This document shows, one piece after another, positions 26,275-34,914 of a DNA stretch of 35,023 nucleotides (position 1 is the stretch's first letter; each line of letters starts with the position of its first letter). The notes beneath the pieces are model-generated. The model searched no databases, had not been told where the DNA came from, and saw only the letters and a program-made list of their open reading frames with translations. Location: the NCBI GenBank assembly GCA_902779165.1, contig CACZAN010000044.1, positions 1 through 35,023 on the forward strand. The letters are read 5' to 3'. Source of the stretch: an uncultured Bacteroidales bacterium. Lineage in GTDB: Bacteria; Bacteroidota; Bacteroidia; Bacteroidales; Bacteroidaceae. A program made the translations under genes and the position numbers.

Positions 26275-26301
26275 GAGATTGTACCGCGATATGAAACAGT
26301 G
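26275..26301 (+). repeat. 27-bp direct repeat, left copy
   Basis: Starts GAGATTGTACCGCG and ends ATATGAAACAGTG; identical to 27460-27486. The two copies bracket the DUF4160/DUF2442 pair. The flanking bases differ, so the identity ends sharply. The rest of 26106-26382 shows no gene. Confidence 0.8.
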
Positions 26302-27459: not shown

Positions 27460-27486
27460 GAGATTGTACCGCGATATGAAACAGTG
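27460..27486 (+). repeat. 27-bp direct repeat, right copy
   Basis: Exact copy of 26275-26301, 1185 bp away in the same orientation. See the left copy. Confidence 0.8.
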
Positions 27487-27585
27487 GGGGGCTTTGCGGC
27501 GTGATTTCAAGATAATGGCTCGCGTCCGGGAAATGAATAAATGGCAAACGACGTTGAGCTGATTCACCTACCGGGATGACTGCAT

Positions 27586-27610
27586 AAAAAACTCCCACCG
27601 AAGCGGGAGT
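27586..27610 (-). terminator. Terminator of the tracrRNA
   Basis: On the minus strand ACTCCCGC and GTGGGAGT pair around a TTCG tetraloop closed by C-G, followed by six T. It forms the 3' end of the tracrRNA. Confidence 0.9.
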
Positions 27611-27665
27611 ATAGGTTAAAAACCTTCGGCCAAAGGCCTTATTGTGATAAGATGTAGGAATCTTA
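27586..27665 (-). ncRNA. tracrRNA of the type II-C CRISPR system
   Basis: About 80 nt, minus strand, between the cas9 start and the 27-bp repeat. The 5' end contains the anti-repeat TTCCTACATCTTATCACAAT (27660-27641). Against repeat nucleotides 1-20 it gives 18 pairs, two of them G-U, with a single 2x2 U-U internal loop at repeat positions 9-10: a lower stem of 8 pairs, the loop and an upper stem of 10 pairs, the layout expected for Cas9 recognition. Next come a GGCC-TTT-GGCC element (27638-27628), AGGTT-TTT-AACCT, and the UUCG terminator hairpin. The start near 27665 is inferred from the -7 box. Confidence 0.88.
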
Positions 27666-27670
27666 CGGCA

Positions 27671-27678
27671 CAAAAGTA
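27671..27678 (-). promoter_or_regulatory. tracrRNA promoter -7 box
   Basis: TACTTTTG on the minus strand fits TAnnTTTG and ends about 6 nt before the inferred tracrRNA start. Its -33 region would fall near 27698-27702, inside the cas9 promoter; only a weak TTT is seen there. Confidence 0.6.
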
Positions 27679-27687
27679 GTGGATTAT

Positions 27688-27718
27688 TTTGGTACATGGA
27701 AATTTTGTTGTATCTTTA
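27688..27718 (+). promoter_or_regulatory. cas9 operon promoter
   Basis: TTTG (27688-27691), a 19-nt spacer and TATCTTTA (27711-27718), differing from the consensus only at the last base. It predicts a short leader of about 20 nt before the cas9 ATG. Confidence 0.65.
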
Positions 27719-27745
27719 CCCCCAAATTTAAGACAATTTAATATT

Positions 27746-30700
27746 ATGGAGCGTATTTTAGGTATAGATACTGGAACAAATAGCCTGGGATGGGCTATTG
27801 TTGAGAAAGAGGGTGACTCTTATCGCCTCCTTCACAAAGGTACGAACATTTTCTCAGAAGGTGTGAAGATTGAGAAAGGCATTGAGTCCTCGCGTGCAGC
27901 AGAACGCACTGAGCACAGGGCCGTCCGTCGTCACTATTGGCGCCGGAAGGTTCGTAAGATCAGCCTTTTGAAAATTCTTATTGATAATCATCTGTGTCCT
28001 TCTATTCCCAAGGAAAGCTTACGCGAGTGGCGCTTGAAGAAAGTCTATCCTAAGGACGAGGCTTTCATGAGCTGGCTGCTGACAGAGGATAAGACAGGCG
28101 TGAACCCCTATCACTTCCGGTACTTGTGCTTGACCCAGAAACTTGACCTCTCAAATCCTACACAGCGTTATATCCTCGGACGTGCGCTGTATCACTTGAA
28201 CCAGCGTCGTGGCTTCCTGAGCAACCGCAAGGAAACGACCAAGGCTTCGGAGGGCAACGTGAGTACGGGTATCAGTGAACTTACAGCAGAGATTGAAGCT
28301 GCCGGTTGCACGTATCTTGGTGAGTATTTCTATCATCTCTACGAGAAAGGTGAGAAGATTCGCAAACATTATACAGCCCGTAAGGAACACTATCTGAAGG
28401 AGTTTCGCGCTATTTGTGAGAAACAGTGTCTGGATACAGCGCTCGCAAACAAGTTGGAGGAAGCCATTTTCAGCCAGCGTCCGTTGAAGTCTCAGAAGGG
28501 ACAAGTAGGAACTTGCACCTTTGAAAAAGGCAAGCCCCGTTGTCCGATATCACATCCCTTGTATGAGGATTTCCGTATGTATGCATTTTTGAATAATGTC
28601 AAGATCCAAACTCCTTTCGATGCAGAATTACGACCTTTGGACAAGGACGAGTTGCAGAAGGTCATGCCTTTGTTCAAGCGCAAATCCAAACGAAGCTTCA
28701 ACTTTGAGGACATCGCCAAAAAGCTGGCCCCCAAGAATAGCTACTGCTTCTATAAAGACAATGAGCAGAAGCCCTATCGCTTCAACTACCCGATGGATAC
28801 GTCTGTTTCCGGTTCCATTGTCAATGCACAATTGGAGGATATCTTTGGCGAGAACTGGCTGGATGCCGTCTGTGAAGTTTATACGTTAGGTGCAAGCAAG
28901 AGCCGTTTGGAAATCCTGAATGACATTTGGCATGCCCTCTTCTTCTTCGATGATGAGGACAAACTGAAGGAGTTTGCTATGAACCGCCTACAACTTTCCG
29001 AAGAAGACGCCACGCGTTTCAGTAAAATTTCGATACCCCAGGACTACGCTTCACTGAGTCTCAAAGCCATCTGCAAGATACTGCCTTATATGCGTGATTA
29101 TGGCTTGATTTACTCACATGCCGTCTTCCTTGGAAACTTGAAAGAGGTGCTTCCTTCTCATGTGTGGGGTGTTCCGCAAATGAGACAGGCGGCGATAGAG
29201 AAGGTGATAGAGGTGCTGTTCTCTGTGCAGCAGACCTCCGACAGCCGCACTCAGGAGCAGAGTGTGAAAGAATTCCTTAAAGAGCGTTATCACCTGGACG
29301 ACAAGGCGGTTAATAAGCTCTATCATCCATCAATGATAGACCTCTATCCCCGCGTCCGTCCCAACGACGAGGGCTTGTATCAGTTAGGTTCTCCCCGCAT
29401 CAGCAGTGTGCGTAACCCGATGGCTATGCACTCGCTCTTCCGCCTGCGCAAGGTCGTCAATCTCCTTTTGCAGAAAGGATATATCGACCACGAGACGACC
29501 ATACATATTGAATTCTCCCGTGACCTGAATGATGCCAACCGCCGCTGGGCCATACAGGCTTGGCAGCGTGAGAACGAAAAAGACCGTGAACGTTGCAAGA
29601 AGGAGATAGAGAAACTCTTCAAGGAAGCTACGGGCAGAGATTCTGTTGAGATATCTGATCGCGACATCCTCAAATACCAGCTTTGGGAAGAACAGCATCA
29701 CAAATGTCTCTATACTGGGGAGGAAATAGGGCTGACAGATTTCCTCGGCGAACATCCCAAGTACGACATCGAACACACGGTACCACGCAGCGCCGGCGGC
29801 GACAGCACGAAGATGAACCTCACACTTTGTAGCAGTCGGTATAACCGTGAAGTGAAGAAAACCAAGCTACCCACAGAACTCGCAGAATATGAAGCTATTC
29901 TCCAACGCATCGAGGAGTGGAAAGAACGCTACGAAGACCTCGACCGTCAGATTCGTAAGACGAAAGGAATGCCATCAGCCACCAAGGAGGAGAAGGACAA
30001 GAAAATCCGGCGTCGCCATCTTCTTACATTACAACGCGATTACTGGCGTGGCAAGTACAACCGTTTCACGATGACTGAAGTACCAGAAGGCTTCTCGCGC
30101 CGACAGGGTACAGACATTAGCGTCATCTCGCGCTACGCCCGCCTTTTTCTGAAATCCGTCTTCCCGCACGTATATATAGTAAAAGGTATAGCCACCTCCG
30201 ATTTCCGCAAGATTTGGGGCATCCAGGAAGAATACACCAAGAAGGAGCGTGTGAACCACGTCCACCACTGCATCGATGCCATCACCATTGCATGCATCGG
30301 TCCTGACGAATACGCTAAGTTAGCGCAGTACTATCACGATGAGGAAAACCACGAATGGTACGGGAAATCGAAAGGACAAATCACCCCTCCCTGGGCTAAC
30401 TTTGTTGAGGACATCCACAAGATTCAGGATGAGTTGTTGGTGGCACACTATACGGAAGATAGGATGCAAAAACGTGCAAAGAGATATGTCCGTACGGCTA
30501 AAGGTAAAGTCCTGACAGCAGGCGATTCAGCTCGCGCCTCATTGCATAACGACACCTATTACGGTGCTATCAGCGTGGGTGATGAAATCAAATATGTCGT
30601 CCGTCGGCCTTTGGATGCTTTGGAAGAGAAGGATATAAAGAATATCGTGGATGAGGTTGTGCGGAAGAAGATAGAAGACGCGATTGTAAAATATGGAAAC

Positions 30701-31357
30701 TTGAAGGAGGCATTAGAGCACACCATTTGGATGAACGAGGAGAAACATATTCCTATCAAGAAGGTACGTGTGTTCACTCCTTCTGTTACCCGTCCTTTGA
30801 ATATACGCCAGCAACGCGACCAATCGCGTCATGAATACAAGCGTCAATATCATGTTCAAAACGACCGTAACTATATGATGGCCATTTACGTTGGTCAGAA
30901 TGAGAAAGGAAAGGAGAAACGGGATTTTGAACTCGTCAGCAATCTTGCAGCCGCCAGTCGTTCCAAGAAGAGCGGAGGTGTCCAGCAACCTTTGGCGCCG
31001 ATTGCCAAGAACGGACTCCCGTTGGTCTATCAACTGAAAATAGGAACGATGGTGTTGCTCTATGAAAAGAGTCCTGAGGAAATCTGGACGGCGAGTCAAA
31101 AGGAGATGCAGAGGAGGTTGTATAAGGTGACGGGGTTGTCATCTTTGGTAATATCTTCTTACCACTATGGAACGATTGTATTGGTACATCATCAGGAGGC
31201 AAGACCAAGTTCGGACGTTAAACAGAAGAATGGTATATTTATTTCTGGTGAGGATTTTCGCTCTTCAATCAAACTTTATCACACTCAATTCAAGGCTCTT
31301 GTTCAAGGCTTCGACTTTCAAATCAATGACCTTGGAGAAATACATCGTCTAAGATGA
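27746..31357 (+). CDS. cas9: CRISPR-associated endonuclease Cas9, type II-C
   Basis: 1203 aa from MERILGIDTGTNSLGWA. An upstream in-frame ATG at 27695 lies inside the promoter, so 27746 is chosen. RNA-guided double-strand DNA nuclease. RuvC-I has Asp8; the Arg-rich bridge helix is at about 48-80 (AAERTEHRAVRRHYWRRKVR); RuvC-II is HIEFSRD with Glu589; the HNH site is YDIEHTVPRS with His677 and the matching Asn700; RuvC-III is HVHHCIDA with His841 and Asp844. All catalytic residues are intact. The REC region (about 80-570) is shorter than in 1350-1500 aa Cas9 proteins, and residues about 900-1203 form the wedge and PAM-interacting part. The lack of csn2 and cas4 makes it II-C. Confidence 0.97.
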   Translation: MERILGIDTGTNSLGWAIVEKEGDSYRLLHKGTNIFSEGVKIEKGIESSRAAERTEHRAVRRHYWRRKVRKISLLKILIDNHLCPSIPKESLREWRLKKVYPKDEAFMSWLLTEDKTGVNPYHFRYLCLTQKLDLSNPTQRYILGRALYHLNQRRGFLSNRKETTKASEGNVSTGISELTAEIEAAGCTYLGEYFYHLYEKGEKIRKHYTARKEHYLKEFRAICEKQCLDTALANKLEEAIFSQRPLKSQKGQVGTCTFEKGKPRCPISHPLYEDFRMYAFLNNVKIQTPFDAELRPLDKDELQKVMPLFKRKSKRSFNFEDIAKKLAPKNSYCFYKDNEQKPYRFNYPMDTSVSGSIVNAQLEDIFGENWLDAVCEVYTLGASKSRLEILNDIWHALFFFDDEDKLKEFAMNRLQLSEEDATRFSKISIPQDYASLSLKAICKILPYMRDYGLIYSHAVFLGNLKEVLPSHVWGVPQMRQAAIEKVIEVLFSVQQTSDSRTQEQSVKEFLKERYHLDDKAVNKLYHPSMIDLYPRVRPNDEGLYQLGSPRISSVRNPMAMHSLFRLRKVVNLLLQKGYIDHETTIHIEFSRDLNDANRRWAIQAWQRENEKDRERCKKEIEKLFKEATGRDSVEISDRDILKYQLWEEQHHKCLYTGEEIGLTDFLGEHPKYDIEHTVPRSAGGDSTKMNLTLCSSRYNREVKKTKLPTELAEYEAILQRIEEWKERYEDLDRQIRKTKGMPSATKEEKDKKIRRRHLLTLQRDYWRGKYNRFTMTEVPEGFSRRQGTDISVISRYARLFLKSVFPHVYIVKGIATSDFRKIWGIQEEYTKKERVNHVHHCIDAITIACIGPDEYAKLAQYYHDEENHEWYGKSKGQITPPWANFVEDIHKIQDELLVAHYTEDRMQKRAKRYVRTAKGKVLTAGDSARASLHNDTYYGAISVGDEIKYVVRRPLDALEEKDIKNIVDEVVRKKIEDAIVKYGNLKEALEHTIWMNEEKHIPIKKVRVFTPSVTRPLNIRQQRDQSRHEYKRQYHVQNDRNYMMAIYVGQNEKGKEKRDFELVSNLAAASRSKKSGGVQQPLAPIAKNGLPLVYQLKIGTMVLLYEKSPEEIWTASQKEMQRRLYKVTGLSSLVISSYHYGTIVLVHHQEARPSSDVKQKNGIFISGEDFRSSIKLYHTQFKALVQGFDFQINDLGEIHRLR

Positions 31358-32671: not shown

Positions 32672-34016
32672 GTTGTGGTTTGATGTAGGAAACAGATGAT
32701 AAACAACTGGTGTAAGTGGGGCAACTGCAAGCACCTGTTGTGGTTTGATGTAGGAAACAGATGATAAACAACCTGTAGCTGTTGCCAGGGACGATACCGC
32801 CCGTTGTGGTTTGATGTAGGAAACAGATGATAAACAACTACGAAAGAACGGGTATTGATGGCCGTTAGTTGTGGTTTGATGTAGGAAACAGATGATAAAC
32901 AACTATCTTTGATTTTTACAAAGATTACTTTGGTTGTGGTTTGATGTAGGAAACAGATGATAAACAACTTCGGTAGCGAGCCGCGCGAGGTTTTTGGTGT
33001 TGTGGTTTGATGTAGGAAACAGATGATAAACAACTCCAAAGTTGATTTAAGCGAATAATAACTGTTGTGGTTTGATGTAGGAAACAGATGATAAACAACT
33101 ATAATTGTAAACATTATTCTCAGAAGGTGTTGTGGTTTGATGTAGGAAACAGATGATAAACAACCTTATGAAAATGGAACTTTCATTCCCCAAGTTGTGG
33201 TTTGATGTAGGAAACAGATGATAAACAACAATCAGTGAGAAAAGCACCAGTTAACTCTGGTTGTGGTTTGATGTAGGAAACAGATGATAAACAACAGTCT
33301 GTCATAATTTCCTTTTAATTTATTTGTTGTGGTTTGATGTAGGAAACAGATGATAAACAACCGACAGCGCAACGATGGCGCAGTTTGGCAGTTGTGGTTT
33401 GATGTAGGAAACAGATGATAAACAACGCAAAAGTGCAAAAGTGCAAAAGCACCCCTGTTGTGGTTTGATGTAGGAAACAGATGATAAACAACATCTTTTA
33501 TATATTGCGCGCGTCATAGGGGTTGTGGTTTGATGTAGGAAACAGATGATAAACAACTTGAAGGACGGAACGCTTGTCCCTGCATTGTTGTGGTTTGATG
33601 TAGGAAACAGATGATAAACAACGAAGACTCCTGAAGACATATATTTTCACCTGTTGTGGTTTGATGTAGGAAACAGATGATAAACAACTCAGGGCCAGCG
33701 CCAAGTAGATGCTATCGCGTTGTGGTTTGATGTAGGAAACAGATGATAAACAACATTGACGAGATAGAGGATACGCTACGGCTGTTGTGGTTTGATGTAG
33801 GAAACAGATGATAAACAACTTCGGTGGTGATTCCCTGCGCGGCGGCGGCGTTGTGGTTTGATGTAGGAAACAGATGATAAACAACTTTGATCCTTTGATA
33901 CACGAGTTATATTTGTTGTGGTTTGATGTAGGAAACAGATGATAAACAACCTGCAAGCAATTCGTGAACAGTTGAAATATGTTGTGGTTTGATGTAGGAA
34001 ACAGATGATAAACTAC
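32672..34016 (+). CRISPR. CRISPR array, 21 repeats and 20 spacers
   Basis: The repeat is 36 nt: it starts GTTGTGGTTTGATGTAGG, ends AAACAGATGATAAACAAC, and its ends GTTGT/ACAAC are inverted. Repeats begin at 32672, 32737, 32803, 32868, 32933, 32999, 33064, 33129, 33194, 33260, 33326, 33391, 33457, 33522, 33587, 33653, 33719, 33784, 33850, 33915 and 33981. Spacers are 29 or 30 nt and all differ. Repeats 1-20 are identical; the last has one change (AACTAC for AACAAC, at 34014), marking the old, leader-distal end. The anti-repeat polarity shows that crRNA is read from the + strand, the direction of the cas genes. New spacers should enter at 32708. Confidence 0.98.
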
Positions 34017-34360: not shown

Positions 34361-34606
34361 ATGAGTACAGCAACACTAACAGGTTTACTGCAATACCTCT
34401 ACGGAACACTCACACCGAGCAATATGCGTTGGGTGGGTGAACATCTCATAGAGTACGCCAATAAGGAAGAAGAACAAGCATTGCAGCCATTAACGATGGA
34501 AGAGATAGATGCGATGCTTGACGAAGCTGAAAGCGATTTTGCGGCAGGAAATTATCTCACCCACGACGAAGTGTTTCACCGCCACAATGAAGCCTTAACC
34601 ATATGA
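34361..34606 (+). CDS. Antitoxin of a ParD/ParE-like pair
   Basis: 81 aa, acidic. The N-terminal half (TLTGLLQYLYGTLTPSNMRW) may be the DNA-binding or dimerising part, and the C-terminal half (LTMEEIDAMLDEAESDFAAG, then NYLTHDEVFHR) matches the tail of antitoxins paired with RelE/ParE toxins. The gene precedes the toxin and overlaps it by 4 nt (ATGA), the standard order. The exact antitoxin family is uncertain. Confidence 0.82.
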   Translation: MSTATLTGLLQYLYGTLTPSNMRWVGEHLIEYANKEEEQALQPLTMEEIDAMLDEAESDFAAGNYLTHDEVFHRHNEALTI

Positions 34607-34914
34607 ATATTCATTGGCATAAACGTGCCGTTGCTGCACTGCAACAAGTTGAAGCATACGTCTTGGATAAGTTCGGTGAACAAACACGTCAGGAATTCAT
34701 GGATGAAGTGGATCAGGCGGTACTTGCTTTAGCAAAAACACCTTCCATGGGTAAGAAAGACCCGTTGTTTGCTCATCGTCGTCAGGAATATCGTAGCATA
34801 GTCGTCCGCCGGTTGAACAAGGTAGTATATTATATCAAGGACGATACTATCCATATCGCAGCTTTTTGGGATACTCGACGTGAACCTCAAGCACAGGCTC
34901 GCCAAGTTAAATAG
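34603..34914 (+). CDS. RelE/ParE-superfamily toxin
   Basis: 103 aa. The ParE-like fold is recognisable from the N-terminal MNIHWHKRAVAALQQVEAYV, two helices, then the beta strands EYRSIVVRRLNKVVYYIKDD and IHIAAFWDTRREP. The terminal DTRR-P pattern is typical of ParE-like toxins, which poison gyrase or, in RelE relatives, cleave mRNA; which one applies here is not decidable. It looks intact and is coupled to its antitoxin. Confidence 0.87.
   Translation: MNIHWHKRAVAALQQVEAYVLDKFGEQTRQEFMDEVDQAVLALAKTPSMGKKDPLFAHRRQEYRSIVVRRLNKVVYYIKDDTIHIAAFWDTRREPQAQARQVK

What the first reader, a model, noticed from the sequence alone, without database searches (positions are those of the whole stretch)
27586..27665. 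tracrRNA read directly from sequence, antisense to cas9
Seen: on the + strand, 27641-27660 matches repeat nucleotides 1-20 at 16 of 20 positions. Transcribed from the minus strand it gives 18 pairs with the crRNA repeat (two G-U) and one 2x2 U-U internal loop, then a compact tail with a UUCG-capped terminator. Known: Cas9 guides need exactly this repeat:anti-repeat duplex with an internal bulge. The whole RNA is about 80 nt with a very short 3' tail, which makes it a compact native guide scaffold.
Basis: partly seen in the sequence, partly recalled or inferred. Interest (0 to 1): 0.75.

Follow-up and report, generated by a model that had tools for sequence, protein, structure and literature searches.

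The report
tracrRNA gene beside a Prevotella-type cas9
This is the small partner RNA (tracrRNA) of an ordinary bacterial CRISPR-Cas9 immune system; the less ordinary part is that its front end, in this and many related bacteria, looks able to fold back and cover part of the stretch that must pair with the guide RNA.

Summary
Minus strand 27586-27667 encodes a tracrRNA: 20-nt anti-repeat (18 pairs with the repeat, two G-U, one 2x2 U-U loop), nexus stem, small hairpin, UUCG terminator. The window and all 33 related cas9 loci examined carry the same RNA in the same place after a TAnnTTTG box; repeat and anti-repeat change together (536 of 600 cells paired; 0 of 10,000 permutations). The genome (86% complete) shows one cas9 and no better anti-repeat. 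Transcription was not testable. Two corrections: it is divergent from cas9, not overlapping, and its tail (50 nt) is average (median 51), so 'unusually compact' fails. Going further, the 5' leader is complementary to the distal anti-repeat, predicting a 5'-terminal hairpin that hides the internal-loop bases and shows repeat-complementary bases in its loop: 78 of 105 loci (related, some duplicate), 30 distinct stems; own pairing beats swapped pairing (0 of 20,000) and a pseudo-leader control shows nothing; 27 of 105 lack it. Its role (gate or end cap) is inferred.

The parts
27586..27667 (-). predicted tracrRNA, about 82 nt
   Evidence: covariance model R1 (built with this site among its 34 rows) matches 27588-27667; ends predicted, not mapped
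27641..27660 (-). anti-repeat, 18 pairs with crRNA repeat nt 1-20, 2x2 U-U internal loop
   Evidence: co-varies with the repeat across loci
27660..27666 (-). 5' arm (GUAAGAU) of a predicted 5'-terminal hairpin that pairs with the distal anti-repeat
27654..27659 (-). hairpin loop UCCUAC, complementary to the crRNA repeat
   Evidence: 6 of 6 nt
27647..27653 (-). 3' arm (AUCUUAU) of the 5' hairpin, inside the anti-repeat and spanning the internal-loop UU
27628..27638 (-). nexus stem-loop GGCC-UUU-GGCC
27613..27625 (-). second small hairpin AGGUU-UUU-AACCU
27586..27610 (-). intrinsic terminator, 8-bp UUCG stem-loop plus U6
   Evidence: stems of 105 loci compared
27671..27678 (-). -7 promoter box TACTTTTG (TAnnTTTG), with a weak -33 element TTTC at 27699-27702, 20 nt apart
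   Evidence: box present in the window and 33 of 33 near relatives
27688..27718 (+). likely cas9 promoter TTTG-N19-TATCTTTA (last base of the -7 box off consensus), interleaved with the tracrRNA promoter
   Evidence: sequence only
27746..31357 (+). cas9, 1203 aa
   Evidence: TIGR01865, 454 bits
31354..32241 (+). cas1, type II
   Evidence: TIGR03639
32238..32579 (+). cas2
   Evidence: TIGR01573
32672..34016 (+). CRISPR array, 21 repeats of 36 nt and 20 spacers of 29-30 nt; last repeat with one changed base

Best explanation
A type II-C tracrRNA gene. Seen in sequence: a TAnnTTTG box, then a stretch of about 82 nt, divergent from cas9, whose anti-repeat pairs with the first 20 nt of each crRNA repeat, followed by a nexus stem, a small hairpin and an intrinsic terminator. 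Inferred: the box drives its transcription, and, by the known pathway, the crRNA:tracrRNA duplex is bound by Cas9 (and probably trimmed by RNase III) and guides cleavage of phage DNA. Further, supported by covariation but not by experiment: the free tracrRNA begins at about its first base with a hairpin in which the leader covers the distal anti-repeat, including the UU that stays unpaired with the crRNA, while the loop displays the proximal anti-repeat that matches the repeat. Most likely role, inferred and much less certain than the rest (about even odds that it has any role beyond capping the RNA end): the hairpin protects the 5' end of the free RNA and is opened when the crRNA repeat pairs with the loop and displaces the leader.
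For: Repeat/anti-repeat covariation over the 30 of 34 loci with a readable array: 536 of 600 cells paired, 10,000 permutations mean 501, max 523. Same site and strand and TAnnTTTG box in the window and 33 of 33 relatives; tail aligned in all 34. Terminator stems differ in sequence yet remain stems. Sole cas9 in the genome. One of eight spacers tested is identical (29/29) to a viral contig. Hairpin: 78 of 105 loci with >=5 leader:anti-repeat pairs, 30 distinct stems, loops 3-16 nt, 4 or 5 nt between the -7 box and the stem in 57 of 68 loci with box and stem; swap test on 26 loci from other families of the order, own -3.10 against swapped -1.60 (sd 0.22), 0 of 20,000; pseudo-leaders from upstream of the box -0.46 against -0.45; loop bases in Watson-Crick runs with the own repeat 367 of 393 in 56 loci, 5' arm 53 of 490.
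Against: No transcript data. The hairpin is weak (-3 to -5 kcal/mol in most) and absent in 27 of 105 loci: in 8 order-level loci the promoter box leaves less than 5 nt of leader, and 5 of the 6 loci with a fully paired anti-repeat lack it (L065, L066, L067, L069, L070; L071 has a weak five-pair fold). By leader-only shuffles 45 of 95 loci are above 0.05. Some of the 30 stems are short and AU-rich. The loop being complementary to the repeat is partly built in, since the loop lies within or beside the anti-repeat.
Confidence: 0.93

Rival explanations
1. The tracrRNA is real, but the 5' hairpin only caps the RNA end (stability against 5'-dependent decay) and has no role in crRNA pairing.
For: The stem starts at the predicted first transcribed bases (4 or 5 nt after the -7 box in 57 of 68); 5' stem-loops commonly stabilise bacterial small RNAs (recalled).
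Against: The hairpin uses the anti-repeat as its 3' arm, and the loop displays at least three repeat-complementary bases in 55 of 56 loci, which end-capping alone does not require; but this is partly a matter of position.
Confidence: 0.4
2. The leader/anti-repeat inverted repeat is a DNA operator between the divergent cas9 and tracrRNA promoters, bound by a regulator, rather than an RNA structure.
For: It sits beside interleaved divergent promoters.
Against: Arm spacing varies from 3 to 16 nt and the sequence turns over while complementarity is kept (30 stems); a fixed operator would keep sequence and spacing.
Confidence: 0.1
3. A degenerate, non-functional anti-repeat or a fragment of an old array.
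For: 16 of 20 identity to the repeat.
Against: Covariation, TAnnTTTG box, nexus and terminator kept in the window and 33 of 33 relatives and matches across the order.
Confidence: 0.01
4. The true tracrRNA lies elsewhere, in the unassembled 14% of the genome, or is a gapped anti-repeat that the search missed.
For: The assembly is 85.95% complete; one search was ungapped.
Against: The divergent position next to cas9 is found in the window and all 33 relatives, and no better anti-repeat is found in the assembly.
Confidence: 0.02

Closest known systems
tracrRNA of type II-C CRISPR-Cas in Bacteroidota (Prevotella intermedia PMC5608340, Riemerella anatipestifer PMC5006608, Flavobacterium psychrophilum PMC10309648; passages read)
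   Same: cas9, cas1, cas2 and an anti-repeat or tracrRNA at the cas9 side; TAnnTTTG is named as the Bacteroidetes promoter in PMC10309648.
   Different: In the passages read, promoters for the P. intermedia tracrRNA could not be strongly predicted, R. anatipestifer gives only a 16-nt anti-repeat, and the F. [quoted passage not shown] none of these passages describes a leader hairpin. Here box, leader, tail and terminator are compared over 105 loci.
tracrRNA groups of Cas9 orthologs (PMC7606464, passages read)
   Same: Repeat:anti-repeat duplex with or without a bulge by clade, nexus-like stem loop, 3' hairpins, poly-U.
   Different: Those passages describe single-guide designs that join 16 nt of repeat to the anti-repeat by a GAAA loop, so the native 5' leader is left out; it is not discussed in them.
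tracr-L of Streptococcus pyogenes (recalled, not read)
   Same: A tracrRNA whose 5' extension has its own function.
   Different: tracr-L uses its 5' part as a guide against the cas9 promoter; here the leader is about 7 nt and pairs with the anti-repeat itself.

Membership tests
tracrRNA | anti-repeat complementary to the CRISPR repeat, outside the array | tested here: met
   18 pairs
tracrRNA | repeat and anti-repeat co-vary between relatives | tested here: met
   30 loci, 0 of 10,000 permutations; relatedness not removed
tracrRNA | located in the cas9 locus | tested here: met
   86 nt from anti-repeat to cas9 start; window and 33 of 33 relatives
tracrRNA | nexus and 3' hairpins after the anti-repeat | tested here: met
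tracrRNA | own promoter and terminator | tested here: met
   sequence only:
tracrRNA | transcribed, bound by Cas9, needed for cutting | not testable with these tools
   needs RNA and biochemistry
any Rfam 15 family, tracrRNA included | match at the gathering score | tested here: not met
   only a tRNA in the window; the five weak hits at 27560-27720 are all far below their cut-offs and none is a tracrRNA model
type II-C CRISPR-Cas | cas9, cas1, cas2 and array, without csn2 or cas4 | tested here: met
   no csn2/cas4 among the six ORFs scanned; the window ends 1 kb after the array
unusually compact guide scaffold | tail shorter than in relatives | tested here: not met
   50 nt against median 51, range 46-66, 105 loci

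The most novel reading that the evidence does not exclude
In Bacteroidales II-C systems the tracrRNA is self-gated: its first transcribed bases fold onto the distal anti-repeat and hold the RNA closed, with a repeat-matching loop as the landing site, so that only the cognate crRNA repeat opens it by strand displacement; the conserved unpaired UU of the guide duplex would be kept because those bases serve the closed form.
Probability: 0.3. Interest if true: 0.65.

Novelty: new variant of a known kind. Interest (0 to 1): 0.42.

Why it matters
It identifies, by sequence, the native second guide RNA for a group of Cas9 proteins in rumen and gut Bacteroidales, shows that the RNA recurs across the order with no matching Rfam model in this scan, and points to a leader structure that single-guide designs leave out and that could control how tracrRNA meets crRNA. 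A direct test is simple: probe the free RNA and compare annealing with and without the leader.

Tried and rejected
Unusually compact scaffold: rejected. Transcript antisense to cas9: rejected; divergent and non-overlapping. A better anti-repeat elsewhere: none found (ungapped). RNAalifold on the MAFFT alignment misaligned the terminator and found little covariation; I counted stems around the loop instead, but those stems were chosen by a search for complementary arms, so that count shows different sequences forming the same stem, not independent covariation, and two of the 105 stems it picked are poor. The model R1 was built on that alignment, so its terminator part is weak. Whole-locus, two-strand search: the cas9-side site was top in 28 of 34; in L048, L050, L053, L060, L062 and L070 another site scored higher; five of those six carry the repeat's own reverse complement (array or stray copies that my exclusion missed) and L048's looks like a degenerate one. 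One search then looked only at the strand opposite cas9. PAM: eight of 20 spacers were scanned; spacer 3 matched 29/29 and spacer 2 27/30, with 3' flanks CACCTATAAG and TGCGCGAAGG; two are too few for a motif, and the three mismatches lie outside the stretch I required to match. A search of the array against phage records gave one weak partial match. The sigma-70 scan found nothing for the tracrRNA, as expected for this phylum. Literature: no leader hairpin was noticed in the titles and abstracts listed (searches listed 20 of 58, 15 of 100 and 15 of 51) nor in the passages read; papers I took to be the main tracrRNA surveys are not held, so it may be in print.

Full report
The locus. The window lies on contig 44 of an 85.95%-complete genome; related cas9 loci come from records titled Prevotella, Prevotellaceae, Bacteroidaceae and Bacteroidales, most of them uncultured. 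It holds cas9 (27746-31357, 1203 aa), cas1, cas2 and a 21-repeat array. The Cas9 family search finds one cas9 in the genome. No csn2 or cas4 was found among the six ORFs scanned, so by gene content this is type II-C.

The observation. Positions 27641-27660 match the repeat at 16 of 20. Read on the minus strand the stretch gives 18 pairs (two G-U) and a 2x2 U-U loop, and is followed by GGCC-UUU-GGCC, a small AGGUU/AACCU hairpin and a UUCG terminator with six U. The strand folds better than 200 of 200 dinucleotide shuffles, and the anti-repeat score of 15 is not reached in 300 mononucleotide shuffles of the upstream region. The terminator scan by itself is not significant (one found, 0.6 expected). 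No site in the assembly matches better apart from the array itself (ungapped).

Relatives. I compared the window with 33 loci: the 21 and 12 regions from the genus set. Of the 139 genus genomes, 15 had a strong cas9 match (E at most 4.9e-188); besides the own genome I left out G106 (same place as L040) and G134 (match over half of cas9 only). In the window and 33 of 33 the strand opposite cas9 carries the anti-repeat within 420 nt upstream; searched on both strands over whole loci it was the top site in 28 of 34. In the window and 33 of 33 a TAnnTTTG box lies just before it. Thirty of the 34 have an array that my script could read; over these, 477 Watson-Crick and 59 G-U pairs fill 536 of 600 cells, more than any of 10,000 permutations (max 523). 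Examples of matched changes are GUAGGAA with UUCCUAC, GUAGAAA with UUUCUAC, GAUGAAU with AUUCAUC and GUUGCGG with CGCAAU. Of the 64 unpaired cells, 50 are the U-U loop (present in 25 of 30), 13 are at positions 19-20, and one is a C8-A mismatch in L050. The repeats are nearly constant over nt 1-14, differ by clade over nt 15-20, where the anti-repeat follows, and vary strongly beyond, where the anti-repeat has ended.

Breadth. A covariance model built from these 34 hits 37 of 399 genomes sampled from the family and 34 of 393 from the order, the own genome counted in both. I fetched 71 of the 77 listed matches; left out were the own-genome hit in each search, G105 and G109 already held, the second hit in G850 and a 67-nt partial hit in G688. 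A cas9 hit by tblastn was found in 61 of the 71 stretches; the ten without are L077, L081, L090, L107, L109, L116, L133, L134, L136 and L140; in L076 it covers 40 residues only and in L085 it lies 1.2 kb away. Together with the 34 this gives 105 loci, not all independent. The terminator arms differ in sequence at each of the seven pairs counted, with changes on both sides (for example CUCCCGC/GUGGGAG, GCCCCUC/GAGGGGC, CUCCGCG/CGUGGAG); since the arms were found by looking for complementarity this shows a kept stem rather than a statistical test. The apex is UUCG in 69 of 105. Tail length from the anti-repeat to the end of the terminator stem is 46-66 nt, median 51, window 50, so the window's tail is average. 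The TAnnTTTG box is found in 88 of 105, against 18 of 93 control windows further upstream.

The leader. The predicted fold of the window RNA pairs the first bases GUAAGAU with AUCUUAU inside the anti-repeat. This covers the UU that forms the internal loop with the crRNA. Over 105 loci, 78 have at least five leader:anti-repeat pairs: 27 of 34 near, 33 of 37 family, 18 of 34 order. There are 30 distinct stems, such as AUAAGAU/AUCUUAU, AAGAUAUU/AAUAUCUU, GAUGUAAA/UUUACAUC and AAGAAAAAA/UUUUUUCUU; loops range from 3 to 16 nt; 4 or 5 nt separate the -7 box from the stem in 57 of the 68 loci with both. Among loci with an NUAAG leader, all nine whose anti-repeat arm ends in C have G opposite it, while those ending in U have G in 17, A in 29, C in 1 and U in 2; three further loci with a C-ending arm have no such leader (L109, L116, L128).

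Tests of the leader. Giving each anti-repeat another locus's leader weakens the fold: all distinct pairs n=73, own -2.92 against -1.93 (0 of 10,000); loci from other families of the order with a leader of at least 5 nt, n=26, own -3.10 against -1.60 (0 of 20,000). Stretches of equal length from upstream of the box show no effect (-0.46 against -0.45, n=56; -0.67 against -0.61, n=14). With leader-only shuffles, 50 of 95 loci are at or below 0.05 and 69 of 95 at or below 0.1. Against the idea: 27 of 105 lack the hairpin, among them five of the six loci whose anti-repeat pairs fully through the loop positions (L065, L066, L067, L069, L070; L071 has a weak five-pair fold), L068 and L072, and eight order-level loci whose box leaves less than 5 nt of leader. 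Relatedness is not removed by any of these permutations, and at least two pairs of loci are the same contig (L074/L047, L075/L045).

What the hairpin could do. In the 56 loci with both a hairpin and a readable repeat, 367 of 393 loop bases lie in Watson-Crick runs of five or more with the locus's own repeat, against 53 of 490 bases of the 5' arm; exchanging repeats among the 17 such loci numbered L095 and up lowers the count from 115 to 64 on average, with 0 of 1,000 reaching it. So the loop shows crRNA-matching bases and the leader is not a copy of the repeat. The duplex with the repeat (-24 kcal/mol) outweighs the hairpin (-4.0 in the window). I read this as a 5'-end structure that the crRNA opens from the loop. 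Whether it matters for stability, for specificity or for timing is open.

The immune function. Eight of the 20 spacers were scanned against 2.9 million viral contigs by exact 19-25-nt stretches; two gave hits: spacer 3 is identical over 29 of 29 nt to a contig stretch (L145), and spacer 2 matches over 27 of 30 (L144). This supports a real phage memory; no PAM can be read from two sites.

Verdict. As a tracrRNA it is a new member of a known kind. The covariation-supported leader hairpin, not found in the papers I could search, is the reason for recording it as a variant; its function is inferred.

Noticed in passing
L077:601-715: An orphan tracrRNA (no cas9 hit in the 3.3 kb held) sits directly against a single complete CRISPR repeat at its 5' end; the same genome has a second copy of the tracrRNA beside a partial cas9 match (L076).
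   Followed up: partly
L060:8189-8269 and L060:9371-9451: Two identical copies of the tracrRNA 1.2 kb apart on the same strand upstream of cas9.
   Followed up: no
L065-L072: By eye on the alignment: in the clade with GATGATGA repeats the tail hairpin carries GATGAA(T) complementary to ATTCATC at the 5' end of the anti-repeat, a possible other way to cover the anti-repeat; six of these eight loci have no internal loop.
   Followed up: no
26275-26301 and 27460-27486: A perfect 27-nt direct repeat, starts 1185 nt apart, just upstream of the tracrRNA locus, with only these two copies in the assembly.
   Followed up: partly
34361-34914: Two short overlapping ORFs after the array that look to me like a RelE/ParE-type toxin-antitoxin pair (recalled resemblance; no NCBIfam match).
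   Followed up: no
27671-27718: The cas9 and tracrRNA promoters appear interleaved: the likely cas9 -33 element lies between the -7 and -33 elements of the tracrRNA.
   Followed up: partly
33064-33148: This stretch of the array matches the end of a 5.6-kb unannotated phage record MT838156.1 at 75.6% over about 85 nt, perhaps a repeat-like sequence carried by a phage.
   Followed up: no
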